A stretch of DNA of 18,329 nt. Origin: Cytophagaceae bacterium. GTDB lineage: Bacteria; Bacteroidota; Bacteroidia; Cytophagales; Spirosomataceae. This document shows, in pieces, positions 1,945 through 18,329 of this stretch. The stretch spans positions 1-18,329 of the forward strand of contig JAIXRT010000208.1 in assembly GCA_027485075.1 (NCBI GenBank), in the 5' to 3' direction. The position numbers and the translations under genes were made by a program. The notes under the pieces are model-generated. The model was not told the DNA's origin. It ran no database searches and saw only the letters and a list, made by a program, of their open reading frames with translations. The first letter of the stretch is position 1. Each line of letters opens with the position of its first letter.

Positions 1945-1954
1945 GAGTATTTTT

Positions 1955-3070: not shown

Positions 3071-3162
3071 ATTTTAAATTCAACATTAAAAATGTTTTTG
3101 TATTTTTAATTTTGTATTTTGTATTTTCAGACACAGACTCTCTATCTACTACTTTGTATGTG

Positions 3163-3199
3163 ATTACTCCTCGCATCGTTTTAGCGATCTGGGAGTAAT
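3163..3199 (-). terminator. Stem-loop at 3' end of lysine-rich protein gene
   Basis: ATTACTCC (3163-3170) pairs with GGAGTAAT (3192-3199), with an inner ATCG/CGAT pairing around TTTTAG. It lies 5 nt beyond the stop codon of the minus-strand gene. ATTACTCCTCG recurs at the gene's last codons (3204 onward), so an alternative pairing is possible. Confidence 0.6.
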
Positions 3200-3203
3200 G
3201 AAA

Positions 3204-4289: not shown

Positions 4290-4417
4290 TTTGCTGGGCG
4301 GGGTTTAAAACTTGGAAAATCAGTAAACTGCTTTTGGAAAAGTAGATTAAACTTTGACTTGGAATATTCTGGCTTGCGCACCCTTCATTTCTGTCGGCCA
4401 TCCGATTTCAATTTTTT
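4290..4417 (-). promoter_or_regulatory. Early promoter and CCAAG leader of 3204-4289 gene
   Basis: Reading on the minus strand, AAAAAATTGAAAT (4417-4405) is followed by GAAGGGTGCGC about 20 nt later. Three TTCCAAG/TTTTCCAA copies then precede the ATG at 4289. This is the same layout as the early genes at 8.5-18 kb. The rest of the 4290-4558 gap shows nothing else clear. Confidence 0.7.
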
Positions 4418-4558
4418 CTTTTGCGCCCCGCGACTGATTTGATGGGTGTGATTTTGTAGGTGGACCGTTGTACGGTTTATTCTTTATACGATATTGTGTG
4501 GTAAATATTGTCGAATTAATTGTGTGTTAGATTTAGAAAGTTCTACACAGTATATAGA

Positions 4559-6246: not shown

Positions 6247-6348
6247 TTGTCTGTATAGTATATAATTAATTTATTTTGGAATGAATTAATTATATTATGT
6301 AAATATTAATTATTAATCAAGTGTGATTAATGCAAGCTAAAAGAGTGT

Positions 6349-7329: not shown

Positions 7330-7429
7330 TTTATACTCTGTCGTCAGAAAAAAATTTCTTTAAGTTCGGAGATTTTAAAAATGCCTCGGAGGGTTCCAAA
7401 TTTTTAGAGGCGCCCTTAGTAGGTGTAAA
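7330..7429. promoter_or_regulatory. Divergent putative late promoter region
   Basis: This 100-bp gap separates two divergent genes. Both starts are preceded by A-rich cores directly on the ATG: GTATAAAATG on the minus strand and GTGTAAAATG on the plus strand. AAAATTGA is absent. A shared late-type promoter is inferred. Confidence 0.45.
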
Positions 7430-7810
7430 ATGCCAGCTTATCTCCGTTTTAGAGGTGTAATGACGGGTGCAGCTGGCGCTGGAGGCTGTGTTAAGATAAA
7501 CTGTTCGTCGAGTGGCATAAAATGTATGTCTTCCGTAAATTTTCTTGAGAAGCTATCCAATAAATTACTTGATATGACTAAATCTTTACAGGATCAGTTC
7601 TCTGAGTTGGTCCGTCCTGCGCCGTCTGGTGGAGGCGACGGTGGTATTTATATCGCAAAAATCGATACACCTGTTATGGTTATCGGTGTCAAATACGAAT
7701 ACGTTCTGTATATTCAGAGATATGGTCCGCCCGAGAATGGTTTATTCGATGAAGCAATCCTTACAGAGTTACGTGCAGAGCTCGGTGTAAATGCCGCAAC
7801 CGCGCTCTAA
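7430..7810 (+). CDS. Hypothetical protein, 126 aa
   Basis: The protein has a Gly/Ala-rich start (GVMTGAAGAGGC) with three cysteines among the first ~35 residues. A short amphipathic helix follows (FLEKLSNKLLDMTKSLQDQF), then a flexible PAPSGGGDGG linker. The C-terminal part is mixed beta/helix (IDTPVMVIGVKYEYVLYIQ, then DEAILTELRAELG). No known family is recognised. It starts at an ATG preceded by GTGTAAA and is divergent from the alanine-rich gene. It ends 150 bp before the next rightward gene, with three ACTTAAAG-type elements between. Confidence 0.55.
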   Translation: MPAYLRFRGVMTGAAGAGGCVKINCSSSGIKCMSSVNFLEKLSNKLLDMTKSLQDQFSELVRPAPSGGGDGGIYIAKIDTPVMVIGVKYEYVLYIQRYGPPENGLFDEAILTELRAELGVNAATAL

Positions 7811-7838
7811 CCGGACGGGATGTGCGTTGGGGTGTCGG

Positions 7839-7915
7839 AGGGGACTTAAAGCCGCCGTAGGATTCTGTCGGACAGGGGACTTAAAGGATTACTGTGGCTG
7901 CGGGCTTAAAGCCCC
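7839..7915. promoter_or_regulatory. Three GGGGACTTAAAG-type palindromic elements
   Basis: The elements AGGGGACTTAAAGCC (7839-7853), AGGGGACTTAAAGG (7874-7887) and GCGGGCTTAAAGCCCC (7900-7915) lie in the gap before the gene at 7961. The third contains a perfect GGGCTT-A-AAGCCC dyad. The same elements occur next to promoters at 10.1, 11.2 and 12.1 kb. Confidence 0.6.
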
Positions 7916-7960
7916 TTGGTGTCGCATTTGTAACACAGATTGTATTAGGCTGCGGTGGAA

Positions 7961-8416
7961 ATGTCACGATTACTATTTGAAGAATTTGTACCTGATGCAG
8001 GGATTTTGAACCTGTTAGAAAATAAAGCACTTGTTATATTTGGGATACAACAGATTTATATTAAGTGGTGGCCTTTGAGGCAATGTTGTATTATTTATGA
8101 TGGGGTGCGATGGGACATCGTAGAGCGTGAAGATGGTGGGCGCGATGTGACGATTCGAATGTTGCTGGCGCATTATGAAATTGGCGGAGAGAGTAATACC
8201 CAGTTTGTACTTGAGCGTGGTACAGGACTAATTCATAATATACTTGATACAAGTATTGATGGACTGCGAGAGGACATTGTTTTGAGATTGTGTGATTTGT
8301 CAGATTTGAGAGTTGAGCAGAATGCAGGACTGAGTCAGAAAGATTTAGATGCACAAATCCGTGGTGATGGCCGAGAGTGTGATGATATTGCGGCACATCT
8401 ATTTGGTCAAGAATAA
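7961..8416 (+). CDS. Hypothetical protein, 151 aa
   Basis: The start is the ATG at 7961; a GTG two codons upstream is less likely. The protein is a compact mixed alpha/beta sequence: KALVIFGIQQIYIKWWP, CCIIYDGVRWDIVERED, then a helical, Asp-rich C-terminal half (SIDGLREDIVLRLCDLSDLR). No signal peptide, membrane segment or known motif is seen. No AAAATTGA motif is visible. The upstream gap contains three ACTTAAAG palindromes. The 3' end is followed by a TACTTA/TAAGTA stem-loop. The function is unknown. Confidence 0.55.
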   Translation: MSRLLFEEFVPDAGILNLLENKALVIFGIQQIYIKWWPLRQCCIIYDGVRWDIVEREDGGRDVTIRMLLAHYEIGGESNTQFVLERGTGLIHNILDTSIDGLREDIVLRLCDLSDLRVEQNAGLSQKDLDAQIRGDGRECDDIAAHLFGQE

Positions 8417-8442
8417 TATTATGGAAAGCGCGGTAGGGAGTG

Positions 8443-8457
8443 TACTTAAAATAAGTA
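8443..8457. terminator. TACTTA-AAA-TAAGTA stem-loop
   Basis: A perfect 6-bp dyad with a 3-nt loop, followed by GTATTTTT, lies 27 nt after the stop of the 151-aa gene. It ends 39 nt before the next early promoter, the spacing seen for the upstream element of other cassettes, so it may be either a terminator or a promoter element. Confidence 0.45.
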
Positions 8458-8496
8458 GTATTTTTGATGATATTTATTTTAAGAATTTATGGAGGG

Positions 8497-8611
8497 AAAA
8501 ATTGAAATGTAGAAAGGGCCGAATAGAATGTTGGGGCGCTATTATCCAAGATTCAAGTTTCTGATTATTCCAAGTTTTAAGTTTCTGAATTCGCTCCGTC
8601 CAAGTTATAAA
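8497..8611 (+). promoter_or_regulatory. Early promoter and CCAAG leader of 8612 gene
   Basis: AAAAATTGAAAT lies at 8497-8508. The leader to the ATG holds TATCCAAGATTCAAG, TTCCAAGTTTTAAG and GTCCAAGTTATAAA, the CCAAG repeats seen before all early genes in this window. Because the leader is repetitive and non-coding elsewhere, the ATG at 8612 is preferred over the in-frame ATG at 8528. Confidence 0.75.
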
Positions 8612-9271
8612 ATGGCTTCTGCAACTGCCTGCTACGAAAGTATCCGTTACCCACGCGTTATGGAGTGGGACGATTTCATCGATCATATGAGGTCATCATT
8701 GATATCTCCTACTACTCCCCTTGCAGTAGGAAGCCGTCCTTGGGCGTGTTCTGTAAGGGGATGTGATGGAGTCTGTGCAGCTGGTCGTCCTACTACTCCT
8801 GCTCCTGCTCCTGTTGCTCCTGTTGCTCCTGTTGCTCCTGTTGCTCCTGTTGCTCCTGCTCCTGCTCCAGTTGCTCCTGTTAAGACACCCGATCAAACAA
8901 TGTTTCACTTCATCGCTGGAAACTACTATGGACTGCACGAACGCCTTATTAGCTCCTCCTATAGAGCTTATACACTATGGCTTAGCACGCAGACTGTTGA
9001 GTTCAAGACTTCAAAGACTCCATACGATTCGATGACTTACTTTCTGGCCGATACCAGAACAACAGATTTGGAATACTATGCTGACTCTAGAATGCGATAT
9101 GATCGCATCTTAATGCTTCAGAGGTTCTTCCCTCGTCGGTCTGTGATGGAGATGAAGGAGATTGTCTATCCTTTGTATATGAAATGGTGTGAGACGGCTG
9201 TGTTCCCTCCAAAGGTCAACAGGTGGCAGAAGATGAAGGCGTTCGCAGCAGAGTATGGAACTCTGGCGTAG
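8612..9271 (+). CDS. Hypothetical protein with Pro-Val-Ala repeat linker
   Basis: The protein has 219 residues. An N-terminal region contains a cysteine cluster (C46, C51, C55 in WACSVRGCDGVC) that could bind a metal. A low-complexity Ala-Pro/Val-Ala-Pro linker spans residues 63-90. A ~125-residue C-terminal domain follows, rich in Tyr, Met and Arg (SMTYFLADTRTTDLEYYADS, MKEIVYPLYMKWCE), ending FAAEYGTLA. The linker separates two folded parts. No known family is recognised. The last nine codons and the 3' flank are duplicated at 11223-11345, showing that a second copy once existed. It converges with the paralogous-family gene at 9432. Confidence 0.7.
   Translation: MASATACYESIRYPRVMEWDDFIDHMRSSLISPTTPLAVGSRPWACSVRGCDGVCAAGRPTTPAPAPVAPVAPVAPVAPVAPAPAPVAPVKTPDQTMFHFIAGNYYGLHERLISSSYRAYTLWLSTQTVEFKTSKTPYDSMTYFLADTRTTDLEYYADSRMRYDRILMLQRFFPRRSVMEMKEIVYPLYMKWCETAVFPPKVNRWQKMKAFAAEYGTLA
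8798..8881 (+). repeat. 9-bp minisatellite (CCTGTTGCT) in coding region
   Basis: Tandem units of CCTGTTGCT, with CCTGCT variants, encode the APV/APA linker of the 8612 gene. The near identity of the units suggests copy-number instability. Confidence 0.85.
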
Positions 9272-9431
9272 ATTAGTGTACCTGGTCTGTATAAATCAAA
9301 AACAAAACAAAAAAGTTATAACCCCCAATTAAAAACTTTTTCATTTAAAGTTTTACCGTTTTTATTCGCTTTGCTGGTTTTATATTAAACACTTTGTAAC
9401 TTCAGACGATTTAGTCATCATCATAGCACCC
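9272..9431. terminator. Convergent 3' region with A/T stem-loop
   Basis: Between two convergent genes lie GTTATAACCCCC (9314-9325), then TAAAAACTTT/AAAGTTTTA pairing (about 9329-9355), then TTTTTATTCGCTTTGCTGG. The first ~90 bp recur at 11253-11345 and the latter string at ~10170. It is probably a bidirectional transcript-end region. Confidence 0.5.
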
Positions 9432-9953
9432 TTAAAAGTTAACAGTGTATGTTGCACACATCACAAATTCATCATCTACTACCTCTTCAGTGATTGACTC
9501 TTTCTTGATAATTGGCGGCCCCTCATCAGTAGTCTTGTTTACCTTGACGCGCCATACACACTCTACAAAGTCTTTGATTGTGATATCTCTATCTGTCAGC
9601 TTCAAAGTGTAGACGAGTGGTTCACCCTTCCAAGGATGATCCGAATACAACCATTCTGCTCCTGGCATATCATTACGAACGACGAGCTTGTTGATATCAG
9701 CCCAGATAGGAGTGTCCCAAGTAAATTCAGACACAAACTCTGTCAGTTCGTCATCTCTGTACTCGGGTCTGTATTCTTCACCGCACCTTTTACGAGCGTA
9801 TTCCCTATCTTCTTCTATATCATAATACGCTTCAAGTATACTTTTAACACGGAGCTCTTCAAAGTTGAGTTTGAGTGTAGCAGGATGCATCCTAATGCCA
9901 CGGAGACCAACTATTGCAATAGCATTAAGAAGATTATCAGTGAATTCGGCCAT
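9432..9953 (-). CDS. Paralogous family protein A (173 aa)
   Basis: It belongs to a three-member family in this window (also 11423-11953 and 15381-15809). Shared landmarks are an N-terminal helix with LLNAIAIVGLRGIRM then LKLNFEE, a central acidic region, FTWDTPIWADINKLVVRND, then a DITIKDFVECVWRVKV segment and a final short beta strand (CATYTVNF). Between the acidic region and the C terminus this copy has an insert (WLYSDHPWKGEPLVY). No catalytic motif, signal peptide or membrane helix is seen, and I do not know the family. The start is supported by AAAAAATTGAAAC, a GACGGGACCATCTCC box and CCAAG leader repeats upstream. Confidence 0.7.
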   Translation of the reverse strand: MAEFTDNLLNAIAIVGLRGIRMHPATLKLNFEELRVKSILEAYYDIEEDREYARKRCGEEYRPEYRDDELTEFVSEFTWDTPIWADINKLVVRNDMPGAEWLYSDHPWKGEPLVYTLKLTDRDITIKDFVECVWRVKVNKTTDEGPPIIKKESITEEVVDDEFVMCATYTVNF

Positions 9954-10074
9954 TTTGTTTGGGGAGTGCTTTAGAAACTTGGAAGAAAGTCTTGGATTGT
10001 ATGCTTGGGACTTGGGATTGTGTTTGGAGATGGTCCCGTCTTTTGTATTAGTTGTCGCATCGTTTCAATTTTTT
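9954..10074 (-). promoter_or_regulatory. Early promoter, class B, of 9432-9953 gene
   Basis: Reading on the minus strand: AAAAAATTGAAAC (10074-10062), 22 nt, GACGGGACCATCTCC (10040-10026), then a leader with CCCAAG, ATCCAAG and TTCCAAG before the ATG at 9953. The box and spacing match those at 11101-11151 and 12020-12070. The remaining gap to 10241 holds the CTTTAAGTCC element and the stem-loop listed separately. Confidence 0.75.
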
Positions 10075-10088
10075 CTGCCGCAGGCCGT

Positions 10089-10104
10089 GGGGCTTTAAGT
10101 CCCC
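10089..10104. promoter_or_regulatory. GGGGCTTTAAGTCCCC palindromic element
   Basis: This is a near-perfect 16-bp dyad followed by TTTTTTGCGCCC. The same element occurs twice each in the promoter blocks at 11164-11201 and 12083-12120. Confidence 0.6.
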
Positions 10105-10133
10105 TTTTTTGCGCCCTGTTACAAGATACATTA

Positions 10134-10173
10134 AAAAAGTTTAGGGTTTAGAGTTTAGAGTTTTAAACTTTTT
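10134..10173 (-). terminator. AAAAAGTTTA/TAAACTTTTT stem-loop
   Basis: A perfect 10-bp stem (10134-10143 with 10164-10173) has a 20-nt loop made of TTTAGGG/TTTAGAG-like heptamers. It lies ~70 nt beyond the stop of the minus-strand gene at 10242. TTTTTATTCGCTTTGCTGG follows, as at 9357-9377. Confidence 0.6.
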
Positions 10174-10241
10174 ATTCGCTTTGCTGGTTTTATGATTTCG
10201 TGCTAATGCTGTTTTAGATAGTTTCAGTCTCAGTCGGCATA

Positions 10242-11021
10242 TTACAATACGAAAGAAACAGTTGTGGTAGTCTCACCTGTACGCACAACAAACTTGCGGT
10301 CCACATCCTTTTCCGCCAACATCTCTTTAATGATCTCTCTAACAACGGTGCGGGTGTTAAAGCCATATTTTTCATTCTCATCCATTAGCCCAGTATAGTA
10401 CTGAGGAAGTGTGATGAACTTAGGGATTTTAATGTAAATGCCCTGGTTAATATTATCTAGGGTCTTTAATCTCTTTACAACAAGTTTGCGAACACTTTTT
10501 TTGACGTATTCTACGCACGACTCTGGATGTCGGATCAAAGCTGGTTCGCGTCCAACTATCTGGGATACAGTAGGTGTTTCAGAATCACTCGGCGGTACAA
10601 TGAATGAAACGGTGAGCATGAATGTAACGGTGAATATACCGTCTGAAACTTCTTCTGAAGGTATGATGATGAACGGGCGGTCCACGCCCTTTTCCTCTAA
10701 CATCTCCTTAACAACTTCTACAAGAGGTCTTGCAATGTTCATGCTAAATGCATCCTCTTTAGTGTATTCCTTATCACCTACAGAATACCAGATAGGGAAC
10801 TTATACATAAGACCAGTTTGAATGCGCCGGACTATTGTAATATCCAGATTCTGTTCATCAATCATACGACGAACCTCATCTTTAATGTATGTCTTATAGG
10901 ATTCTGGCAGGTCAACATAGTTGGCGTAAAGAGTGTCGTCATGAGGATAGGACTTCAATTTGAGCGACGCCTTTTCATTGGCGATCGCCTCCTTCTGTTC
11001 GTGAGATAGTGCAGAACCCAT
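10242..11021 (-). CDS. Two-domain repeat protein, putative N-myristoylated
   Basis: The 259-aa start at 11021 is preferred. The reading frame extends 88 codons upstream, but that part runs through a promoter block conserved at DNA level elsewhere. Residues ~40-140 and ~167-258 are an internal duplication: ESYKTYIKDEVRRM matches ESCVEYVKKSVRKL, VVKEMLEEKGVDRPFII matches IIKEMLAEKDVDRKFVV, and both end in TVSF. The N terminus MGSALS fits the N-myristoylation pattern (Gly2, Ser6), which would allow membrane attachment; this is inference. No family is recognised. An AAAAAATTGAAAT promoter, the class-B box and CCAAG leader elements lie upstream. Confidence 0.7.
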   Translation of the reverse strand: MGSALSHEQKEAIANEKASLKLKSYPHDDTLYANYVDLPESYKTYIKDEVRRMIDEQNLDITIVRRIQTGLMYKFPIWYSVGDKEYTKEDAFSMNIARPLVEVVKEMLEEKGVDRPFIIIPSEEVSDGIFTVTFMLTVSFIVPPSDSETPTVSQIVGREPALIRHPESCVEYVKKSVRKLVVKRLKTLDNINQGIYIKIPKFITLPQYYTGLMDENEKYGFNTRTVVREIIKEMLAEKDVDRKFVVRTGETTTTVSFVL

Positions 11022-11151
11022 TGTAAACCGATTGAACGATGATAGAGAGATTTGAAAGTCTTGGAGATGCTTGAAACTTGGAAGTATTGTCACGTTTTTT
11101 GGAGATGGTCCCGTCTTTTTTATCGGTCGCCGTCTGATTTCAATTTTTTTT
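11022..11151 (-). promoter_or_regulatory. Early promoter, class B, of 10242-11021 gene
   Basis: On the minus strand: AAAAAAAATTGAAAT (11151-11137), 21 nt, GACGGGACCATCTCC (11115-11101), then a leader with TTCCAAG and CTCCAAG before the ATG. The block 11085-11220 is nearly identical to 11998-12146. Confidence 0.75.
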
Positions 11152-11163
11152 GGCGCGGGCGGT

Positions 11164-11219
11164 GGGGCTTTAAGTCCTCTTTTTGCGCCCTTTAAGTCCC
11201 CTTGCGCGGAAAAATTGAA
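11164..11219 (+). promoter_or_regulatory. Rightward half of bidirectional early promoter
   Basis: GGGGCTTTAAGTCC (11164-11177) and CTTTAAGTCCCC (11190-11201) are followed by AAAAATTGAA (11210-11219) pointing right. With the leftward AAAATTGA at 11137-11151, this forms a back-to-back promoter. Its former gene is now only a scar at 11223-11252. Confidence 0.65.
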
Positions 11220-11222
11220 GAG

Positions 11223-11252
11223 GAGGCGGCTGAGTATGGAACTCTGGTGTAG
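11223..11252 (+). pseudogene. Deletion scar: last codons of an 8612-type gene
   Basis: Read in frame, these 30 bases encode EAAEYGTLV followed by TAG. The 8612-9271 gene ends FAAEYGTLA followed by TAG, with the 16-base string GAGTATGGAACTCTGG identical. Homology continues past the stop into the 3' flank (GTCTGT...AAATCAAAAA, GTTATAACCCC, AGTTTTACCGTTTTTATT) to about 11345. Directly upstream, 3 nt away, is an intact AAAAATTGAA promoter. The simplest reading is a paralog whose leader and nearly all coding sequence were deleted. Confidence 0.7.
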
Positions 11253-11422
11253 TAGTGTGATGTGTGTCTGGTCTGTGTAAATCAAAAATAAAACAAAAAG
11301 TTATAACCCCAAAATAAAAACTTTTTTGATTAGAGTTTTACCGTTTTTATTTGGTTTAATTTAGTTTTTATTTTAGATGTGTGGTATGTGGTATGTGGTG
11401 CATGTGGTGTGTGGTGAACTGA
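11253..11422. terminator. Convergent 3' region, copy of 9272-9360
   Basis: It contains GTTATAACCCC (11300-11310), then TAAAAACTTTTTTGATTAGAG with the same A/T pairing as at 9329-9355. A TGTGGTATGTGGTGCATGTGG-like repetitive run follows near 11380-11415, ahead of the minus-strand stop at 11423. Confidence 0.45.
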
Positions 11423-11953
11423 TTACGATCCATAATCAAATCCAATGGTAAGCGTCATATTATTGTCTTTGATTTCTTTCTTGTCAATTCCGCAGTAGAG
11501 TTCATTCCAGTAATTATTCTTTTGAGCCTTAACACACCAGACTCCTTCAACAATATCTCTGACTGTTACCCCTGCTGGCGCATCCCTCTCAAATACTAAG
11601 GGTTCATCATATGTGCGCTCTGAATCGCGTTCTGCTTCAGGTTCTTCATTCCTGATAGTGATTTTAGAGATATCTGAAAAGAGAATGGTTTCCCACTTTA
11701 GCGCTGCAATGAACTTCTTCATTTCCTCATCTACTTCTACTTCCGTGCTGCCATCGTCCTCTACAGTGATTCCTTTGGACTTTGCGTCCATCAATCGGTC
11801 ATACGCCTTTTCAGATTCAATCTCTCCCAGCTGGATTGATACTTCACTTGCGTCAAATTCTTCAAACTTTAATACGCGTGTGTCAGGATTCATTGAGACT
11901 TTAAAGATGCCATACTTGATGATGGCGTGAATAAGATCATCAGTCGTGTTCAT
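11423..11953 (-). CDS. Paralogous family protein B (176 aa)
   Basis: This is the second member of the three-gene family. Landmarks are DLIHAIIKYGIFKVSMNPDT and LKFEEF at the N terminus, a strongly acidic middle (VEDDGSTEVEVDEEMKKF), LKWETILFSDISKITIRNEE, and GVTVRDIVEGVWCVKAQ. The C terminus is short and beta-like (MTLTIGFDYGS). It shares most with 9432-9953 in the middle and with 15381-15809 at GVTVR. No known domain is recognised. The upstream block carries AAAAAAAATTGAAAT, the GACGGGACCATCTCC box and CCAAG repeats. With the scar at 11223 it repeats the convergent gene-pair layout of 8612/9432. Confidence 0.7.
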   Translation of the reverse strand: MNTTDDLIHAIIKYGIFKVSMNPDTRVLKFEEFDASEVSIQLGEIESEKAYDRLMDAKSKGITVEDDGSTEVEVDEEMKKFIAALKWETILFSDISKITIRNEEPEAERDSERTYDEPLVFERDAPAGVTVRDIVEGVWCVKAQKNNYWNELYCGIDKKEIKDNNMTLTIGFDYGS

Positions 11954-12070
11954 TCTGTATTCTTGGATTAGGATTAGAGCGTGAAACTTGGATTGGATGT
12001 GCTGCTTGGAAGTGTGTTTGGAGATGGTCCCGTCTTTTGTATCTGGCGCCGTCTGATTTCAATTTTTTTT
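11954..12070 (-). promoter_or_regulatory. Early promoter, class B, of 11423-11953 gene
   Basis: On the minus strand: AAAAAAAATTGAAAT (12070-12056), 21 nt, GACGGGACCATCTCC (12034-12020), then CTTCCAAG, ATCCAAG and ATCCAAG before the ATG at 11953. Confidence 0.75.
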
Positions 12071-12082
12071 GGCGCGGGCGGT

Positions 12083-12224
12083 GGGGCTTTAAGTCCTCTT
12101 TTTGCGCCCTTTAAGTCCCCTGTCGCGGTCGCAGAAAAAATTGAAGACTGGGCGGCGGCATTAAAGAGTTGCGTGCGAGCGTCCACCATCCAAGATTTAC
12201 TTTGCGTATCCAAGATTTATCACA
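12083..12224 (+). promoter_or_regulatory. Rightward early promoter and leader of 60-aa gene
   Basis: GGGGCTTTAAGTCCTC (12083-12098) and CTTTAAGTCCCC (12109-12120) are followed by AAAAAATTGAAG (12135-12146). The leader has ATCCAAGATTTA twice (about 12188 and 12209) before the ATG. Together with 12056-12070 it is a back-to-back promoter. No GGGT dyad is evident. Confidence 0.7.
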
Positions 12225-12407
12225 ATGAATTCCACTATGTTTGCTACTATTACGCGGTTGATTGACGTTGTCATTCGTGCTGACATTGTACCAAGTGACA
12301 CCAAGATTACTGTAAAGTCCGATTCGTCGTGTGTTGTACAGACAGAACCCGTCGTCGTTATCCATACATTTCCTGTTACACCATTTGTTACCATTCAGAT
12401 TCTTTAA
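12225..12407 (+). CDS. Small hypothetical protein, 60 aa
   Basis: This short gene is supported by context: an AAAAAATTGAAG promoter 79 nt upstream, two ATCCAAGATTTA leader elements, the clean start ACAATGAATTCC, and a strong hairpin 22 nt after the stop. The protein is Val/Thr/Ile-rich (ITRLIDVVIRADIVPSDTKI, then VVVIHTFPVTPFVTIQIL) and predicted beta-rich, with no clear membrane segment or signal peptide. It may be complete, or a shortened remnant at the cassette position that the 8612-type genes occupy elsewhere. The function is unknown. Confidence 0.6.
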   Translation: MNSTMFATITRLIDVVIRADIVPSDTKITVKSDSSCVVQTEPVVVIHTFPVTPFVTIQIL

Positions 12408-12428
12408 AGCTCGTGTGATATTAAAAAA

Positions 12429-12458
12429 CTAACAAAAACATTTAACTGTTTTTGTTAG
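12429..12458. terminator. Perfect 12-bp bidirectional terminator hairpin
   Basis: CTAACAAAAACA (12429-12440) and TGTTTTTGTTAG (12447-12458) form a perfect 12-bp stem with a 6-nt loop. It sits between the convergent 60-aa gene and the RRM gene. A run of A precedes it, giving a T-run on the minus strand. The shared 3' motif TATAACCCCTATGCAA (minus strand, about 12478-12463) lies beside it. Confidence 0.8.
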
Positions 12459-12516
12459 GTTTGTTGCATAGGGGTTATAACCTTTTTATATGGTTTTTGG
12501 GTTTTGTGATGGGTTG

Positions 12517-13275
12517 TTAGGCGCGACGGTCTTCCTTTGCAGGCTCTAGACCGATGAAGTTACCGTCGATTGTTAGACTGCCGAACAACTTGTTATATGC
12601 TGCCGCAGCAGACTCTGAAGAGAGGAACTCAATCTTCGCAAATCCCTTGATACTACCATCATAGTAGTTCTTGGGGATGTATACATCCTTCACTGTGCCG
12701 AATGGCTCAAACACGATACGAAGCTTCGCCACTGAAATCGTCTCACGAGGCAGATTCTTCGCCATCAGAGTCTTTCGGCCCTCTGGGAACGGCTCAGGAG
12801 CAATCGCACCGCGTACAAAGCTAGGAGTCTTGAAACTCTTGCGCTTAATTGCGGGGATGAATCCGAACTCATCATCCACATCTGCGAAGTTGGGAAGAGG
12901 TGCGGGTTCAGACTTATCCAGCCACGGCATATCATCTTCATCAGGCTTGAAGAAGACAATAGGACCATAGCTGACATCTGACTCATCGTCACTCTCGCGC
13001 TCAATCTCTGCAGAGGTATCGAGCTCCGCATCCGTTGCCACATCCATCTCATCGACCCATCGTACCTTGCGTTTGGGAGCACCAGGACACTCCTTTGCAG
13101 CCAACTCCTTACGAGGAGTAGAAGGTGTGACGGTAGTGACGGTGGTAGGAAGCGGCTCCGTTTCAGTCAGCAGATCTCCCCACATCACCTCGTTCTTGCT
13201 CATAGCATTGAACAGAGGATCAGAGAAGAAGATGCTGCCGAGCTTGAAACAGATATCGACGATAGATGCTGCCAT
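12517..13275 (-). CDS. RRM-domain RNA-binding protein
   Basis: The protein has 252 residues. A C-terminal RNA recognition motif (~168-246) has RNP2 LMAKNL (170-175) and RNP1 KGFAKIEF (210-217), with the typical FEPFGTVKDVYIPKN between. The first ~165 residues are low-complexity and acidic (WVDEMDVATDAELDTSAEIE) with short W-containing motifs (NEVMWGDLL, DDMPWLDKSEP) that could be binding segments. Both RNP aromatic positions are partly replaced, as RNP1 has F at positions 2 and 8 only. A role in viral or host mRNA handling is likely but inferred. The ATG at 13275 follows four TTCCAAG-type leader repeats and an AAAAATTGAAAT promoter. Confidence 0.88.
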   Translation of the reverse strand: MAASIVDICFKLGSIFFSDPLFNAMSKNEVMWGDLLTETEPLPTTVTTVTPSTPRKELAAKECPGAPKRKVRWVDEMDVATDAELDTSAEIERESDDESDVSYGPIVFFKPDEDDMPWLDKSEPAPLPNFADVDDEFGFIPAIKRKSFKTPSFVRGAIAPEPFPEGRKTLMAKNLPRETISVAKLRIVFEPFGTVKDVYIPKNYYDGSIKGFAKIEFLSSESAAAAYNKLFGSLTIDGNFIGLEPAKEDRRA

Positions 13276-13474
13276 CTTGTATGTTGTACGTATTCAAATA
13301 GTCTTGGAAAGCTTGGAAAATCTTGGAAAGCTTGGAACACTTGAGGAAATCCAGGGTGTAGGATTTCAAACGTTTATACCCGTCTTCCTTTACAGCGGCA
13401 TTCTCATTTCAATTTTTCTTTGCGGGAGGCGCGGTGGATTTTGAAATAAAAAAGTCGTACCACCGCCAAGTAGG
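13276..13474 (-). promoter_or_regulatory. Early promoter, class A, of RRM gene with upstream element
   Basis: On the minus strand: CCTACTTGGCGGTGGTAC (13474-13457), 39 nt, AAAAATTGAAAT (13417-13406), 24 nt, GGGTATAAAC...ACCC (13381-13354), then four CCAAG copies (TTCCAAGCTTTCCAAG and similar) before the ATG. The order and spacings match the rightward cassettes at 16-18 kb. The remainder of the gap to 13624 holds a hairpin and 3' motifs. Confidence 0.75.
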
Positions 13475-13522
13475 ATTTTGGAGCGGGGACTGATATATCT
13501 TACTTTTAATAGTAGAAAACTA

Positions 13523-13547
13523 CAGCAAAAATCCTGCCGCCTTGCTG
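13523..13547 (-). terminator. CAGCAA/TTGCTG hairpin after lysine-rich paralog 2
   Basis: CAGCAA (13523-13528) pairs with TTGCTG (13542-13547). It lies ~80 nt past the stop of the minus-strand gene at 13625. CTAACCCCTATGCAACAAAG (minus strand, about 13579-13560) is the shared 3' motif just before it. Confidence 0.5.
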
Positions 13548-13624
13548 ATTTTCTGCTCTACTTTGTTGCATAGGGGTTAGACCTTTTTATTTAGTGGTTA
13601 TAACCTTTTGTAGTGTATTTGAGT

Positions 13625-14803
13625 TTAACCGAAGACGGGCTCTGGAACCTCGTCGTCGATGCGGCCCTCTGCAGGCAAGTAGACACCCACCCACTCGCCC
13701 ATAGCGCCATCTGCTCCCTTATGCCACACCTCGTCGTCAGAGTTGCGGAAGTAGGTCTTGCCCTTAAAGGACCAAGACTTCACTTCGCCCTCTGCTGGTG
13801 CGACCCACGTGTCTGCTACAACTGGGCGCTTCGCTGCCACTGCCACTGCCACTGCACCTGCACCGCCTGCTGCCTTAACGGGGACGGCGGCGGGCTTGGG
13901 GGCCGCCTTCGCTGCTGCCTTAACGGGCACTGCTGACTTTACAACTGTCTTCTTCACCTTTAAAGCCTTCTCGGCCTCCTTGCGGGCCTTCTCCTCTGCT
14001 GCGGCCTTCTCCTTCTCTGCCTTCGCTGCTGCACGCGCTGCCTTACGCTCCTCAACTTCCGCCTTTGCCGCCTCCTTCCTGGCGGCGGTTTCAGCCTTCT
14101 TCGCCTCACGAAGCTCGGCCTTGCGTGCCTTCTCCTCTGCTGCCGCCTTCTCCTTCGCTGCCTTCTCCTCTGCCTTCTCCGCGGCCGTCTTGCGAACGGT
14201 TACCTTGGAGGAGGTAGTGGACTTGGCGGCGACGGACTCCGTTTCAGAGGCTGGATCCTCCTCATAGGACTCCAGGAACCGCTCCCAAGAGGGATGAGAT
14301 TCCTTACGAGCCTTTGAGAGGGACATTGCCTCCTTGTGGATGATCTGGCGACCAGCGGGAGTTGATTCCGTCACAGAGTCCTCATAGATGTAGGCACCCT
14401 CGTGGAGTACAGAGGCTGGCATTTCGATTGTCTCTTCGACAACCTCACCAGTCTCCTTGTCCTTACGGGATGACTTCACCTCAAAGGCCTCCCAGCCGTT
14501 CTCACGAGCATCCTTCAGAGTGAAGGCTACCCACGCGTTGTTCTTGCGCAGTTGGCGAGGAGTCTTCCCCTTCGGGGCATCCTTCGCCTTCTTTGCAGTC
14601 ACACCACGCTTGGAAGATGACTTCCCCGCTGACTTGCTTGACTTCTCAGCCTGCTTCAACAGCGCACCAATGACCTTGAACAGGTCGGCGCCGTCAAAGT
14701 GCTTTGCAGCAGCAATGAAAGTGGGGACATCAATCTCCATAGAGACGGACGCAGAATCGTCAATTGACACAGCTGACGCAGTAGGAAGCTCGGAAACCGA
14801 CAT
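13625..14803 (-). CDS. Lysine/alanine-rich H1-like protein, paralog 2
   Basis: The start at 14803 (392 aa, MSVSELPTASAV) is preferred over an in-frame ATG 13 codons upstream, which lies in the CCAAG leader. The domain plan is the same as 3204-4289: VPTFIAAAKHFDGADLFKVI near the N terminus; RKNNAWVAFTLKDARENGWE and MPASVLHEGAYIYEDSV in the central domain; a long KAAAEEKARKAE-type helical repeat; an Ala/Pro/Lys stretch (KAAAKAAPKPAAVPVKAAGG); and the C-terminal small domain with FKGKTYF, EVWHKG and GEWVGVY. The charged region is longer than in paralog 1. Chromatin or genome-binding function is inferred from composition. It has a class-A early promoter. Confidence 0.8.
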   Translation of the reverse strand: MSVSELPTASAVSIDDSASVSMEIDVPTFIAAAKHFDGADLFKVIGALLKQAEKSSKSAGKSSSKRGVTAKKAKDAPKGKTPRQLRKNNAWVAFTLKDARENGWEAFEVKSSRKDKETGEVVEETIEMPASVLHEGAYIYEDSVTESTPAGRQIIHKEAMSLSKARKESHPSWERFLESYEEDPASETESVAAKSTTSSKVTVRKTAAEKAEEKAAKEKAAAEEKARKAELREAKKAETAARKEAAKAEVEERKAARAAAKAEKEKAAAEEKARKEAEKALKVKKTVVKSAVPVKAAAKAAPKPAAVPVKAAGGAGAVAVAVAAKRPVVADTWVAPAEGEVKSWSFKGKTYFRNSDDEVWHKGADGAMGEWVGVYLPAEGRIDDEVPEPVFG

Positions 14804-14957
14804 TTTAACCTTGGAAAGCCTGGGATAGAACCTGGAAATCACGGAAAACTTGGAATAATCAGAACGCTTGAATACTGAGTTAATCTCTGGGTAATGAGAT
14901 TAAATGTGTTTAGACCCAGCTTCTTTAGTAGGGGTCTGGCCGTTTCAATTTTTTTTT
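14804..14957 (-). promoter_or_regulatory. Early promoter, class A, of 13625-14803 gene
   Basis: On the minus strand: AAAAAAAATTGAAAC (14957-14943), 23 nt, CTGGGT...ACCCAG dyad (14919-14887) enclosing TAAACACATTTAATC, then TTCCAAGTTTTCC, TTTCCAGG and TTTCCAAGG before the ATG. Confidence 0.75.
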
Positions 14958-14973
14958 GAAATTGACAAATTAG

Positions 14974-15215
14974 GGCCGGCCGACCGGCCCCTATGGGGCC
15001 GTTTTAGAGTACTTGGAGTAGGTAAATTTCAACCCTAAAATAAAATTGAAAGTACCCTTTTTAAGGCCCTTTTAGGGCCTTTTTGCCCCCTAAAACCCTT
15101 TTTTGGCCCTTATTGACTTTAAGGATGAAATCCTCAATTTCAAACTAAAATTGAAGGCCTTTTTAGGGGGTCTTTAGACCCTTTTTCTCCCTATTTTAGG
15201 GGGCCTTTAGGCCCC
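14974..15215. repeat. Cluster of stem-loops in the central divergent spacer
   Basis: The 577-bp gap between divergent arrays contains GGCCGGCC (14974-14981) and four hairpins: CGGCCCC-TAT-GGGGCCG (14985-15001), AAGGCCC/GGGCCTT (15063-15081), GGGTCT-TT-AGACCC (15168-15181) and GGGGCC-TTTA-GGCCCC (15200-15215). Most are followed by T-runs. Five TTTTAGGG/CCCTAAAA octamers and extra AAAATTGA copies (15042-15052, about 15146-15155) lie among them. It could be a regulatory hub, stacked terminators or a replication-related site; no gene is seen in it. Confidence 0.7.
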
Positions 15216-15246
15216 TTTTGGACCCCCTTTTTGCCTCAATTTCAGG

Positions 15247-15380
15247 AAAAAATTGAAATTGGCTGGCCATTATTATAGAAGCTGGGTTAAAACACTATAG
15301 AGGATTTCCACTACCCAGGAACCTCACTTCAGTTTTCAAGCTTTCCAAGCCTTACAAGCTTCTTCACCGCTCAATCCAAG
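15247..15380 (+). promoter_or_regulatory. Early promoter, class A, of 15381 gene
   Basis: AAAAAATTGAAAT (15247-15259), 22 nt, CTGGGT-TAAAACAC...ACCCAG (15282-15318), then TTTCCAAGCC, CAAGC and ATCCAAG immediately before ATGGCC. Confidence 0.75.
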
Positions 15381-15809
15381 ATGGCCGCCCCTGTTCCTAT
15401 TACGACTCAGGCTATTGCCTCCATCCTCGATGTTGCCTGTTATCAGATATCCATCGCGCCTATCACTCACGAGGTCGTTCTTAATGGGCCTCTTGATGTT
15501 GAAAAGGTTGAGTCTCACCTGTACGAGAACAACGAGGATTATGATGGAGCTCTCGATGGTCTCATCCGTTCTCTTACTTGGGACTCCGTCATCCTCCCTG
15601 GCATCGAGAAGCTCGTCATCATCAATAACTCTGACCCTGAATACACCTATACACGTGAGACGCCTAATGGCGTTACTGTTCGCGCCTTTGTTGAGAGTGT
15701 CGTTAAGGTCAGACTCCCTGCCAAGGAGCTCTTCTGTATACTCCGTTTGGCGGCTGAGGAGAACAGATGCCTAACATATAAGGTCGGATTCCATCACGGC
15801 GTCTATTAA
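15381..15809 (+). CDS. Paralogous family protein C (142 aa)
   Basis: This is the third and shortest member of the family with 9432-9953 and 11423-11953. It keeps the N-terminal helix and strand (AIASILDVACYQISIAPITH), LTWDSVILPGIEKLVIINNS, and GVTVRAFVESVVKVRLPAKE, ending TYKVGFHHGVY. The acidic middle is much shorter than in the other two. The start ATG lies directly after ATCCAAG, with a class-A promoter rather than the class-B promoter of its paralogs. No known domain or catalytic motif is recognised. It is the first gene of the rightward array. Confidence 0.7.
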   Translation: MAAPVPITTQAIASILDVACYQISIAPITHEVVLNGPLDVEKVESHLYENNEDYDGALDGLIRSLTWDSVILPGIEKLVIINNSDPEYTYTRETPNGVTVRAFVESVVKVRLPAKELFCILRLAAEENRCLTYKVGFHHGVY

Positions 15810-15871
15810 TCGCCTTTACATCGCTAATCATAAAACCAAATACAATACTCAATAACTACTATGCAACACAC

Positions 15872-15896
15872 GAAGAAACCGACGACAGGTTTTTTC
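15872..15896 (+). terminator. GAAGAAACC/GGTTTTTTC hairpin
   Basis: A 9-bp stem with one G-U pair (15872-15880 with 15888-15896) and a 7-nt loop follows the motif AATAACTACTATGCAACACAC. The stem and loop are identical at 17388-17412. Confidence 0.75.
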
Positions 15897-15963
15897 ATAC
15901 TCTCCGCTTTTATCACGGCGCGCACAACCACTGTTAAATTTTCATACGTTCCACCCCTGCGGG

Positions 15964-16186
15964 GCTACTTGGTAGTGGGAGGAGTGGAATGATTTTTATT
16001 TGATGGAGGACACCATCAGAAAAAATTTGAAATCAATTCGCCGCTTTTTATGAAGGTGGGTTAAAACACATATAGACACATCACCCAGTGTCTATCTCCA
16101 AGTTTATCTGCGCTTTTCCAAGTTTTACAACGCACTTTTCCACGTTTTATCACACGACACGACACGACACGACACGACACGACACG
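15964..16186 (+). promoter_or_regulatory. Upstream element, early promoter and leader of 16187 gene
   Basis: GCTACTTGGTAGTGGGAG (15964-15981), 38 nt including GATGG-AGGACA-CCATC, AAAAAATTTGAAAT (16020-16033; one extra T against AAAATTGA), 23 nt, TGGGT-TAAAACAC...ACCCA (16057-16087), an overlapping ATAGACAC/GTGTCTAT dyad (16072-16095), then TCCAAGTTTA, TTCCAAGTTTTA and TTCCACGTTTTA. The stretch ends in ACACG repeats at the ATG. Confidence 0.8.
16152..16186 (+). repeat. Seven ACACG pentamers abutting the start codon
   Basis: Seven perfect tandem copies of ACACG end exactly at the base before ATG (16187). It is a microsatellite in the 5' leader, likely unstable in copy number. Confidence 0.95.
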
Positions 16187-16399
16187 ATGGCTTGTGCCAA
16201 ATCTTCTAATCCTGCTCTTGCATACATATTCATTGCTGTTTGTATTGTTGTTGTTCTGGCTTGGATCATTATTCCTTACATACTTGTCAACAGTATCGTC
16301 GCAGCCTATTCTGGCAGTGATGATTATCTCTTTACGATAGTTGCTTCTTCTGCGTTGCTAGTCGCATTTGCTCTCCCCTGTGTTTGTCGTCCCTCTTAA
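16187..16399 (+). CDS. Small membrane protein, two predicted TM helices
   Basis: The protein has 70 residues. The first hydrophobic helix spans ~11-35 (YIFIAVCIVVVLAWIIIPYI) and the second ~48-66 (LFTIVASSALLVAFALPCVC). They are joined by a short polar loop containing YSGSDDY. There are cysteines near both ends. The ATG at 16187 is chosen because the in-frame upstream codons lie in the promoter leader and the ACACG repeat. It is probably an integral membrane protein of host or virion membranes; the function is unknown. It is the second gene of the rightward array, with the full cassette regulatory set on both sides. Confidence 0.65.
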   Translation: MACAKSSNPALAYIFIAVCIVVVLAWIIIPYILVNSIVAAYSGSDDYLFTIVASSALLVAFALPCVCRPS

Positions 16400-16490
16400 T
16401 GAGTCTTTCCCGTCACACACCATACCATACCATGCCACACTATACCACAAAACAAAATCTTATAACACCTATGTAAACACAAATACACAC

Positions 16491-16514
16491 GAAAAGACCC
16501 TTAACGGTTTTTTC
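16491..16514 (+). terminator. GAAAAGACC/GGTTTTTTC hairpin
   Basis: A 9-bp stem with one G-U pair (16491-16499 with 16506-16514) follows TATAACACCTATGTAAACAC. The stem design is the same as at 15872 and 17388, with a different loop. Confidence 0.7.
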
Positions 16515-16540
16515 ATACCCTGCGCTTGCGCGCCTGTGGC

Positions 16541-16735
16541 GCTACTTGGTTGTGGGAGGGCGCGATACGCAAACTTTTTATTCGGCGCTCGTACAGAAAA
16601 ATTTGAAATCTTGACGCCGTTTTAGATTAAGATGGGTTAAAACACACATAGACACATCACCCAGTGTCTATTTCAAAGTTTTCACACTTTTCCAAGTTTA
16701 TCACCGCTTCTCCGCACTTTTCCAAGCTTTACAAG
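16541..16735 (+). promoter_or_regulatory. Upstream element, early promoter and leader of 16736 gene
   Basis: GCTACTTGGTTGTGGGAG (16541-16558), 38 nt, AAAAATTTGAAATC (16597-16610), 22 nt, TGGGT-TAAAACAC...ACCCA (16633-16663), an ATAGACAC/GTGTCTAT dyad (16648-16671), then TTCCAAGTTTA and TTCCAAGCTTTACAAG just before ATGGCC. Confidence 0.8.
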
Positions 16736-17320
16736 ATGGCCGCTCCTGTCGCTGATTATCCTTTTGCCAACTGGACTGATTACTTTAAGGCTCTTTCTCA
16801 AGTATTCAGTACTGAATTCTTTGGCGAGACATATCCTGCATATGAACTTGTATATGAGGACGAAGGTGGTGAGGCTGACCTTCGTATTATTACTGGCTTG
16901 TTAGATGCTGGTGCTAATCCACAGGAGGGATTTGATATGCTCTTAAAGACCTGTATCATTCATCATCGATACTCGTCTGAGTTCATTGATGATATCGCCT
17001 TCCCTTCTATTCTTCAGGCTTTCTTTGATAGAGGCGCTCGTCTTAATATTGATATACTTATTGGCATACACATTGCTACATGTCCTGAACACTTTGAGGA
17101 GGAATCCTATACTGCTGATCCTAGGGGTCGTCTTATCTGGCAGTTGAGGACGATTGTTCCTCATATTATTCAACAACTTGATGTCGCCATTCATTGGAAT
17201 AACCTTGTTCCTGCATATTGGGAGGATATTGATAACGATCCTGTCACTATGGAGGAGTTGCGTGCTGCTGTCTATCGTTCCATTAAGTACACTTATCAGG
17301 AGGTTGCTGCTGAGGCTTAG
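16736..17320 (+). CDS. Ankyrin-repeat-like protein, 194 aa
   Basis: The start at 16736 (ATGGCCGCTCCTGTC) mirrors that of the 15381 gene (both MAAPV). Residues ~50-105 contain two ankyrin-like turns: IITGLLDAGANPQEGFDMLL and ILQAFFDRGARLN, about 40 residues apart with a helical segment between. The spacing is longer than a canonical 33-residue repeat, so the repeats are degenerate. The C-terminal half is helical with Trp and Pro (AIHWNNLVPAYWEDI). Ankyrin proteins are common in giant viruses and usually mediate protein-protein contacts. No F-box is recognised. The partner is unknown. Confidence 0.65.
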   Translation: MAAPVADYPFANWTDYFKALSQVFSTEFFGETYPAYELVYEDEGGEADLRIITGLLDAGANPQEGFDMLLKTCIIHHRYSSEFIDDIAFPSILQAFFDRGARLNIDILIGIHIATCPEHFEEESYTADPRGRLIWQLRTIVPHIIQQLDVAIHWNNLVPAYWEDIDNDPVTMEELRAAVYRSIKYTYQEVAAEA

Positions 17321-17387
17321 CCTGACCTATTGGACGCGTCATAACACATAAAATACAACAATTCTTTATAACATCTATGCAATACAC

Positions 17388-17412
17388 GAAGAAACCGACG
17401 ACAGGTTTTTTC
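17388..17412 (+). terminator. GAAGAAACC/GGTTTTTTC hairpin, identical to 15872
   Basis: The 9-bp stem with a G-U pair (17388-17396 with 17404-17412) is identical in stem and loop to 15872-15896. It follows TATAACATCTATGCAATACAC. Confidence 0.75.
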
Positions 17413-17432
17413 ATACTCTGGCGCCTTGCGGC

Positions 17433-17660
17433 GCTACTTGGTCGTGGGAGGAGTGTAATGATTTTTATTTGATGGAGGACACCATCAGAAAAAGTTGAAA
17501 TCGAGACCCAGTCTGTTTGGAAGCTGGGTTAAAACACTATAGAGATTCTCACTACCCAGAGATTCTCTGCGCTTTTAGAAAAAGCGCCCAAAAGCAGCTA
17601 TAAGATTCTCCTTCAGATTTCCAAGATTTCCAAGCTTCTCCACGCTTCAAATCGCTCAAT
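17433..17660 (+). promoter_or_regulatory. Upstream element, early promoter and leader of 17661 gene
   Basis: GCTACTTGGTCGTGGGAG (17433-17450), 38 nt including GATGG-AGGACA-CCATC, AAAAAGTTGAAATC (17489-17502; one change from AAAATTGA), 21 nt, CTGGGT-TAAAACAC...ACCCAG (17524-17559), then TTTCCAAGATTTCCAAGC before ATGGCC. The leader also holds GCGCTTTT/AAAAAGCGC pairing near 17570-17588. Confidence 0.8.
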
Positions 17661-18137
17661 ATGGCCGTTAACGCTGAACTCGCTGCTGCTCAGGCCGTTG
17701 TCCGCAACGCTCTTGATGCCAGCTGTGTACAGGGACTTAAGGACATTTGGACCGCGCTGTATCAGGAACGCCAGCTCATCTGTAGGCTTGATAGCGAGTG
17801 TGATGCGATGTTCAATGACTGGTACTATGATGAACTCCAACTAATTGACTATATACCTATGTTTATGCTCATTAATTGGACTCCCTTGCGTACTATGACT
17901 CGCTATATCACTAACTGCTCGGATGTCCAGAAGCGACATGCTCATATCTCTGTATCTATCATCAAAAAGTATGGCAGTTGCGCTTGGCCTGTTGGTCGCG
18001 ACTTCGATAGCCTCCTTGCTGCCTACTATGCTTGGGACACTACTAGTGTACCTGGTGATGAGGATAGCCTCTATGAACACATTGTTCGCTTTGTCAATGA
18101 TGATCTTGCTGTACCCTTCCTTGTAGCCTCTGCCTAA
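17661..18137 (+). CDS. Hypothetical protein, 158 aa
   Basis: The protein is mostly helical. An Ala-rich N terminus (ELAAAQAVVRNALDASCVQG) is followed by QERQLICRLDSECDAMFNDW, a hydrophobic YIPMFMLINWTPL stretch that is too short and interrupted for a clear membrane helix, and a C-terminal half with FDSLLAAYYAWDTTSV and YEHIVRFVNDDLAVPFLVAS. No signal peptide or known motif is seen, and no family is recognised. The promoter, leader and 3' modules are those of the neighbouring cassettes, so it is expected to be co-regulated with them although the protein is unrelated. Confidence 0.7.
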   Translation: MAVNAELAAAQAVVRNALDASCVQGLKDIWTALYQERQLICRLDSECDAMFNDWYYDELQLIDYIPMFMLINWTPLRTMTRYITNCSDVQKRHAHISVSIIKKYGSCAWPVGRDFDSLLAAYYAWDTTSVPGDEDSLYEHIVRFVNDDLAVPFLVASA

Positions 18138-18205
18138 ATCATAACTGTCTGCCAATATTAGAAAACACACAAACATCGTAAAACACCTATATACAGAAAA
18201 CGACT

Positions 18206-18228
18206 GAAAAGACCTTCACGGTTTTTTC
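18206..18228 (+). terminator. GAAAAGACC/GGTTTTTTC hairpin
   Basis: A 9-bp stem (18206-18214 with 18220-18228) repeats the stem at 16491-16514 exactly, with a 5-nt loop. It follows AAAACACCTATATACAG. Confidence 0.7.
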
Positions 18229-18262
18229 ATTGCACTTTTGAAGTACTTGTCCTGACAGCACC

Positions 18263-18329
18263 GCTACTTGGTCGTGGGAGAATTACAGATTTTTTATTGA
18301 TGCTGTCGCCCCGTCTAAAAAAATTGAAA
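18263..18329 (+). promoter_or_regulatory. Upstream element and start of next cassette promoter
   Basis: GCTACTTGGTCGTGGGAG (18263-18280) is followed after 36 nt by AAAAAAATTGAAA (18317-18329) at the window edge. A further rightward early gene is predicted just outside the window. Confidence 0.75.

What the first reader, a model, noticed from the sequence alone, without database searches (positions are those of the whole stretch)
13276..18329. Standardised early-gene cassettes: conserved intergenic module, unrelated cargo genes
Between successive same-strand genes the non-coding DNA repeats in fixed order: ATAACNNCTATGCAA-like 3' motif, hairpin, CTACTTGG element, AAAAATTGAAAT, GGGT...ACCC dyad, TTTCCAAG leader, ATGGC. 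Five junctions show it (13.3-13.6, 15.8-16.2, 16.4-16.7, 17.3-17.7 and 18.1-18.3 kb), yet the encoded proteins (RRM, membrane, ankyrin-like, unknown) are not homologous. The 15.86-16.03 and 17.37-17.50 kb modules are nearly identical. This looks like cargo exchange or rapid divergence between regulatory modules kept uniform by recombination or selection.
Basis: seen in the sequence. Interest (0 to 1): 0.75.

Follow-up and report, generated by a model that had tools for sequence, protein, structure and literature searches.

The report
Giant-virus early genes share hairpin leaders
Six neighbouring, mostly unrelated genes of an uncultured giant virus appear to carry the same start signal followed by a small RNA hairpin whose arms change in step while its loop stays fixed, which suggests a built-in RNA control element near the front of these messages.

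Summary
The window is one whole 18.3-kb giant-virus (NCLDV) contig binned in a prokaryote genome. Eleven promoters in it share AAAAnTTGAAA, then AAG at +31 (10 of 11) and GGG at +36 (10 of 11). A 78-135-nt leader follows with no ATG (0 in 1106 nt; about 13 expected by composition) and 2-4 TCCAAG motifs each (26 in leaders, 8 elsewhere). I read this as core promoter, initiator and scanned 5' leader.

It is a hairpin with an 8-nt loop NNNACCC(A/T) and covarying arms (6 of 8 pairs change on both sides among 4 distinct sequences). The loop is complementary to the initiator GGGT, so an H-type pseudoknot near the mRNA 5' end is possible but unproven. CTACTTGG sits 55-57 bp upstream of the promoter at five tandem junctions.

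No pair among the six proteins matches at E<0.05, while paralogs in the window use other leader classes, and near-identical module halves are shared in mosaic fashion. Regulatory modules and coding regions thus evolve separately. I found the element nowhere else, but could reach little related DNA. Function is inferred.

The parts
13406..13417 (-). Early-type promoter AAAAATTGAAAT of the RRM gene 12517-13275
13345..13384 (-). M1: GACGGGT initiator region (GGGT at +36) and 5'-leader hairpin 13345-13368 with loop TACACCCT
13466..13473 (-). CTACTTGG element at -56
14942..14953 (-). Promoter of gene 13625-14803 (no CTACTTGG)
14880..14920 (-). M2: GCTGGGT and leader hairpin 14880-14903, loop ATTACCCA
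15248..15259 (+). Promoter of gene 15381-15809 (no CTACTTGG)
15281..15325 (+). M3: GCTGGGT and leader hairpin 15300-15325 (4+4 bp, 2-nt bulge), loop ACTACCCA; left out of the covariation count
15872..15896 (+). 3' hairpin GAAGAAACC/GGTTTTTTC after gene 15381-15809
15965..15972 (+). CTACTTGG element at -57
16022..16033 (+). Promoter AAAATTTGAAAT of gene 16187-16399
16055..16095 (+). M4: GGTGGGT and leader hairpin 16072-16095, loop ATCACCCA
16491..16514 (+). 3' hairpin GAAAAGACC/GGTTTTTTC after gene 16187-16399
16542..16549 (+). CTACTTGG element at -56
16598..16609 (+). Promoter of gene 16736-17320
16631..16671 (+). M5: GATGGGT and leader hairpin 16648-16671, same 24 nt as M4
17388..17412 (+). 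3' hairpin GAAGAAACC/GGTTTTTTC after gene 16736-17320
17434..17441 (+). CTACTTGG element at -56
17490..17501 (+). Promoter AAAAGTTGAAAT of gene 17661-18137
17523..17566 (+). M6: GCTGGGT and leader hairpin 17543-17566, loop ACTACCCA, one mismatch in the stem
18206..18228 (+). 3' hairpin GAAAAGACC/GGTTTTTTC after gene 17661-18137
18264..18329 (+). CTACTTGG element (-55) and promoter of a further gene cut off by the contig end
12429..12458 (-). 3' hairpin (12 bp) after the RRM gene, preceded by TATAACCCCTATGCAA (minus strand from 12479)
4405..4416 (-). Promoter of gene 3204-4289: same core, AAG at +31, GGG at +33, no hairpin
8497..8508 (+). Promoter of a gene that probably starts at 8612; GGGG at +36, no ACCC hairpin
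10062..10073 (-). Class A promoter of gene 9432-9953 (GACGGGACC, GGG at +36; GGACTTAAAG upstream)
11137..11148 (-). Class A promoter of gene 10242-11021
12056..12067 (-). Class A promoter of gene 11423-11953

Best explanation
These are separate early transcription units of an uncultured giant virus, each built from exchangeable parts. (1) A core promoter AAAAnTTGAAAT positions the viral RNA polymerase so that transcription starts at or near an initiator AAGnnGGG 31-38 bp downstream (inferred from fixed spacing and from where ATG avoidance begins). (2) The mRNA has a leader without ATG and with repeated TCCAAG, which ribosomes scan to the first ATG (inferred). (3) In six genes the first part of the leader folds into a hairpin with covarying arms and a fixed ACCC loop (supported by covariation). 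The loop can pair back to the initiator GGGU, giving an H-type pseudoknot close to the mRNA 5' end (complementarity seen, pairing not proven; about 0.55 given the hairpin). The element most likely acts in RNA, tuning stability or translation of this set of messages together (inferred). (4) Units end with a TATAACnnC-like motif and a 3' hairpin, probably the site of 3'-end formation (inferred from Mimivirus). Upstream and leader halves have been reshuffled between units.
For: Eight columns with at least 9 of 11 identical bases in +12..+45, against mean 0.05 and maximum 2 in 2000 rotation controls. GGGT at exactly +36 in 6 of 6 class B promoters. No ATG in 1106 nt of leader, shuffle mean 13.3, minimum 3 in 5000. 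TCCAAG 26 times in those leaders, 8 times in the other 35,552 nt of both strands. Hairpin: 93.8% of cells paired, 6 of 8 pairs changed on both sides, covariation score 0.833 against 0.287 shuffled (0 of 500 reach it) and 0.000-0.167 slid; present in the minimum-energy fold of 6 of 6 leaders. A model of five copies finds the held-out sixth as its best match at a new place, E 0.087.
Against: Six copies from one contig, two with identical arms, no orthologs, no RNA data. Fold energies are unremarkable for three of six leaders (z -0.83, -1.23, -0.92; the others -2.38 to -2.65). One covariation measure, further pair types, was reached by 48 of 500 shuffles. GGG is conserved without the hairpin too, so GGGT/ACCC pairing has no covariation support, and in 13275 the flanking pair is C/T. 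Only one nucleotide separates ACCC from the 3' arm, which is tight for a pseudoknot. In ASFV the early motif lies about 10 bp before the start (PMC7163114 passages) and in poxviruses the core is at -25 to -13 (PMC5294985 passages), so a start at +31 would be unusually far. The one related virus contig reached lacks the arrangement.
Confidence: 0.6

Rival explanations
1. The hairpin is real RNA but forms no pseudoknot: its fixed ACCC loop is a binding site for a protein, perhaps the RRM protein encoded in the same set, in an autoregulatory loop. This overlaps the main explanation and differs in mechanism only.
For: Loop ACCC invariant in 6 of 6 with variable arms; RRM gene in the set (Pfam PF00076, E 2.1e-10) with its own copy of the hairpin.
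Against: The invariant loop is complementary to the invariant GGGT, five pairs possible in 5 of 6 copies (sequences), which this leaves to chance. No binding data.
Confidence: 0.27
2. The elements work only as DNA: GGGT, ACCC and the inverted arms are sites for viral transcription factors.
For: GGG and CTACTTGG are phased to the promoter within 0-2 bp. An inverted repeat marks immediate early promoters of medusavirus (PMC8557863 passages).
Against: An operator keeps its arms and varies its spacer; here arms vary while pairing is kept and the loop is fixed. Leaders avoid ATG, as transcribed, scanned RNA would.
Confidence: 0.1
3. Plain tandem duplication of gene plus flanks with fast protein divergence; the shared flanks are leftovers and the hairpin is incidental.
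For: Some flanks are near-identical (93%); 9432, 11423 and 15381 are paralogs; class A upstream regions 96% identical over 112 nt.
Against: Class B proteins share no detectable homology, paralogs have different leader classes, flank similarity is mosaic, and arms covary.
Confidence: 0.1

Closest known systems
AAAATTGA early promoter of Mimiviridae (passages of PMC5294985, and PMC4402537)
   Same: Same core word upstream of genes, both strands
   Different: Here a phased AAGnnGGG initiator, long ATG-free TCCAAG leader and, in six genes, a hairpin; I saw none of these in the passages read
Mimivirus 3' hairpin polyadenylation signal (abstract and passages of PMC4402537)
   Same: Hairpin of variable sequence shortly after the stop codon
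   Different: Arms of 9-12 bp here, against 13 or more in Mimivirus as quoted in PMC8557863; preceded here by a conserved TATAACnnC-like word; processing genes not in the window
ASFV early promoter motif plus initiator (passages of PMC7163114)
   Same: Early motif at a fixed distance from an initiator
   Different: Spacing about 10 bp there, about 20 bp from motif end to AAG here; initiator TANA there, AAGnnGGG here
Medusavirus palindromic immediate-early motif (passages of PMC8557863)
   Same: Inverted repeat 5' of mostly unknown early genes
   Different: There a sequence-conserved promoter-like palindrome 40-70 bp before the start codon; here arms vary and the hairpin lies downstream of the promoter
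H-type RNA pseudoknots in 5' leaders (general knowledge)
   Same: Hairpin loop complementary to a nearby single strand
   Different: No Rfam family matches; one-nucleotide third loop is unusual (recalled rule)

Membership tests
NCLDV AAAATTGA-type early promoter | AAAATTGA-like word in the 150 nt or so upstream of the start codon | tested here: met
   11 genes, word starting 114-171 nt before the start codon; four class B/other variants AAAATTTGA, AAAAGTTGA carry one change
NCLDV AAAATTGA-type early promoter | Early expression | not testable with these tools
   No expression data
Mimivirus-type 3' hairpin signal | Perfect or near-perfect hairpin just after the stop codon, 13 bp or more in Mimivirus | tested here: inconclusive
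   9-bp arms (one G-U) after four genes and 12 bp after the RRM gene; shorter than the quoted Mimivirus minimum
Mimivirus-type 3' hairpin signal | Viral RNase III-like cleavage protein and polyA polymerase | not tested
   Window holds 18 kb of a larger genome; I did not search for these genes
Poxvirus-type T5NT early terminator | TTTTTNT shortly before the mRNA 3' end | tested here: inconclusive
   TTTTTAT between CTACTTGG and promoter in 5 of 5, but the word occurs 24 times in the window
H-type pseudoknot | Hairpin stem supported by covariation | tested here: met
   (five copies, four distinct; M3 left out)
H-type pseudoknot | Loop pairs with an outside strand, supported by covariation | tested here: inconclusive
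   GGGT/ACCC complementary in 6 of 6 but invariant
Known RNA families | Match to an Rfam model | tested here: not met
   Two hits in the window, both far below gathering score and elsewhere

The most novel reading that the evidence does not exclude
A giant virus places a small pseudoknot, formed between its own transcription initiator and a hairpin loop, at the 5' end of a whole class of early mRNAs, and shuffles this RNA module among unrelated accessory genes as a portable expression control.
Probability: 0.35. Interest if true: 0.75.

Novelty: new variant of a known kind. Interest (0 to 1): 0.55.

Why it matters
In the papers whose passages I saw, early giant-virus gene control is described by short promoter words. 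A covarying RNA structure repeated near the front of six neighbouring messages would add an RNA layer, give a testable handle on how such viruses stabilise or translate early mRNAs, and show how new accessory genes can be plugged into a ready-made expression module.

Tried and rejected
Searches for the module elsewhere failed. In the own genome the module DNA matched only contig C254 (5 matches). Nine TTCCAAG-rich loci that I looked into held collagen-like repeats. A pattern scan of genome contigs gave 5 stretches, none with the promoter. Protein scans: the 13625 protein gave none, alignment A2 one virus contig, L028, and none in genome contigs, alignment A3 none, the 6349-7329 protein none. 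Among 395 genomes (own included) only the own one matched A2. The covariance model gave nothing convincing in 27 further loci (best E 0.76).

A conserved structure around CTACTTGG was considered: stems fold in single copies but the geometry is not shared, so I claim only a phased element. AlphaFold models of the 16736 and 17661 proteins had mean pLDDT 45 and 40 and were not used; the 'ankyrin-like' label stays unproven (no Pfam match for 16736). A MAFFT alignment of the whole element put M1 out of register, and a first short alignment had M1 shifted by one base by my own coordinates; a gapless 24-nt alignment of five copies was used instead, with M3 left out for its bulge.

Paper searches (listings only, open-licence PMC text) showed no title or abstract reporting such a 5' element in giant viruses. 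The Mimivirus hairpin and transcriptome papers I asked for by DOI were not held.
Full report
WHAT THE WINDOW IS. The window is the whole of contig C254 (18,329 bp) of a 2.3-Mb, 286-contig genome held as a prokaryote species. Its content is viral. The 354-aa protein at 4559-5623, near Pfam DUF5901 (E 0.00012, below the curated cut-off), has 434 metagenomic homologs (120 listed), and a 55% identical copy lies in a virus contig, L028. AAAAATTGAAATC is concentrated here: 3 of the 4 exact sites and 9 of the 32 sites with up to one mismatch in the whole genome are on this contig. I treat it as a misbinned NCLDV contig; which family is not settled. The word 'early' rests on papers, not on expression data.

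CORE SHARED BY ELEVEN GENES. With the first A of AAAAnTTGAAA as 0, eleven genes (4289-, 8612+, 9953-, 11021-, 11953-, 13275-, 14803-, 15381+, 16187+, 16736+, 17661+) were laid over each other without gaps. Columns with at least 9 of 11 identical bases in +12..+45 are +19, +31 to +33, +36 to +38 and +42: eight, against a mean of 0.05 and a maximum of 2 in 2000 rotated controls. AAG at +31 holds in 10 of 11 (8612 has ATG); GGG at +36 holds in 10 of 11 (4289 has it at +33). Some promoters are recent copies of each other (upstream of 11021 and 11953, 96% over 112 nt), so the eleven are not independent. From +36 to the start codon there is no ATG in 1106 nt; shuffles average 13.3, minimum 3 in 5000. 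Because longest ORFs exclude in-frame ATGs by construction, about two thirds of that expectation is informative, and for 8612 I moved the start down from 8528. ATGs do occur at +28 (two genes), +31 and +34, i.e. up to the presumed start. TCCAAG occurs 26 times in these leaders, 2-4 in each, and 8 times in the other 35,552 nt of both strands. I infer a transcription start at or near AAGnnGGG and a scanned leader. Against this, motif-to-start spacing in ASFV and poxviruses is shorter.

THE HAIRPIN CLASS. Six genes in a row (13275- to 17661+) have GGGT at exactly +36 followed by a hairpin with an 8-nt loop carrying ACCC at loop positions 4-7. A scan of both strands for NNNACCCN loops with at least 5 stem pairs (one mismatch tolerated) returned seven sites: five are these modules, all with GGGT within 40 nt upstream; two are weaker sites without GGGT. 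Contiguous stems are 8, 8, 8 and 7 bp in 14803, 16187, 16736 and 13275; 17661 has 4 bp, a mismatch and 6 more. The sixth, 15381, has a 2-nt bulge and escapes that scan, but the hairpin is in its minimum-energy fold, as in the other five. A covariance model of the five finds it at E 0.087, the best match at a new place; only the training copies and two antisense strands rank higher. In the gapless alignment of five copies (four distinct) 6 of 8 pairs change on both sides; score 0.833 against 0.287 shuffled and 0.000-0.167 slid; the count of further pair types is less striking (48 of 500 shuffles reach it). Fold energies alone are ordinary for three of the six.

PSEUDOKNOT. GGGT and ACCC are complementary in 6 of 6, and a flanking T-A pair is possible in 5 of 6. 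Since GGG is conserved also in promoters without the hairpin, its conservation has another cause and pairing cannot be shown by covariation. Only one nucleotide lies between ACCC and the 3' arm. I put the pseudoknot at about 0.55 given the hairpin.

OTHER ELEMENTS. CTACTTGG lies at -55 to -57 of five promoters, each downstream of a gene on the same strand, and not at the divergent pair 14803/15381 nor in the other classes. Class A genes (9953, 11021, 11953) have GGACTTAAAG instead and GACGGGACC with GGG again at +36. Gene ends carry TATAACnnC-like words and hairpins of 9-12 bp, reminiscent of Mimivirus 3' ends.

CARGO AND MOSAIC. All-against-all BLASTP of 19 window proteins finds 3204/13625 (E 6e-35), 9432/11423 (8e-17), 11423/15381 (8e-10) and 9432/15381 (1e-4), and no class B pair below 0.05. 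So paralogs sit behind different leader classes and unrelated proteins behind the same one. Segment identities switch partner at the promoter: upstream 60 bp, 16187/17661 93%; hairpin segment, 16187/16736 93% and 15381/17661 82%; the other class B pairs are 39-74% in those two segments. That favours exchange or conversion between modules.

LIMITS. Six hairpins from one contig, no orthologs, no RNA data. The related contig L028 has AAAAATTGA at four sites with ATG 23-55 nt downstream and no GGG at +36, and its 14.9 kb held here has neither CTACTTGG nor GGGTnnAAAC. The element may be confined to a narrow clade.

Noticed in passing
window 1-18329: Giant-virus contig binned inside a prokaryote genome (contig C254 of G000).
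   Followed up: partly
window 1953-2052 and 2972-3071: A 100-nt direct repeat (89% identical) flanks an A+T-rich FkbM methyltransferase gene (2232-2975, 27% G+C); a weak tyrosine-recombinase-like ORF lies at 428-1399 (Pfam E 0.0011, below cut-off). Looks like an acquired cargo gene.
   Followed up: no
window 8528-9271: The ORF's first ATG (8528) falls at the presumed transcription start; the likely start codon is 8612, after a TCCAAG leader. The protein holds an AlaProVal-rich repeat near 8776-8881.
   Followed up: partly
window 7842, 7877 (+); 10102, 11177, 11199, 12096, 12118 (-): GGACTTAAAG repeated upstream of class A genes and between 7430-7810 and 7961-8416.
   Followed up: no
window 14950-15250: Divergent promoter region filled with GGCC/GGGG-CCTTTAGG-CCCC-like inverted repeats, unlike the tandem junctions.
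   Followed up: no
window 3204-4289 and 13625-14803: Two Ala/Lys-rich paralogs (E 6e-35) of unknown function; the second has 481 metagenomic homologs at E<=0.001, some with low-complexity matches only.
   Followed up: partly
L028 1-3760: The related virus contig carries three tandem ORFs that by eye resemble the window's 6349-7329 protein, next to the DUF5901-like gene.
   Followed up: no
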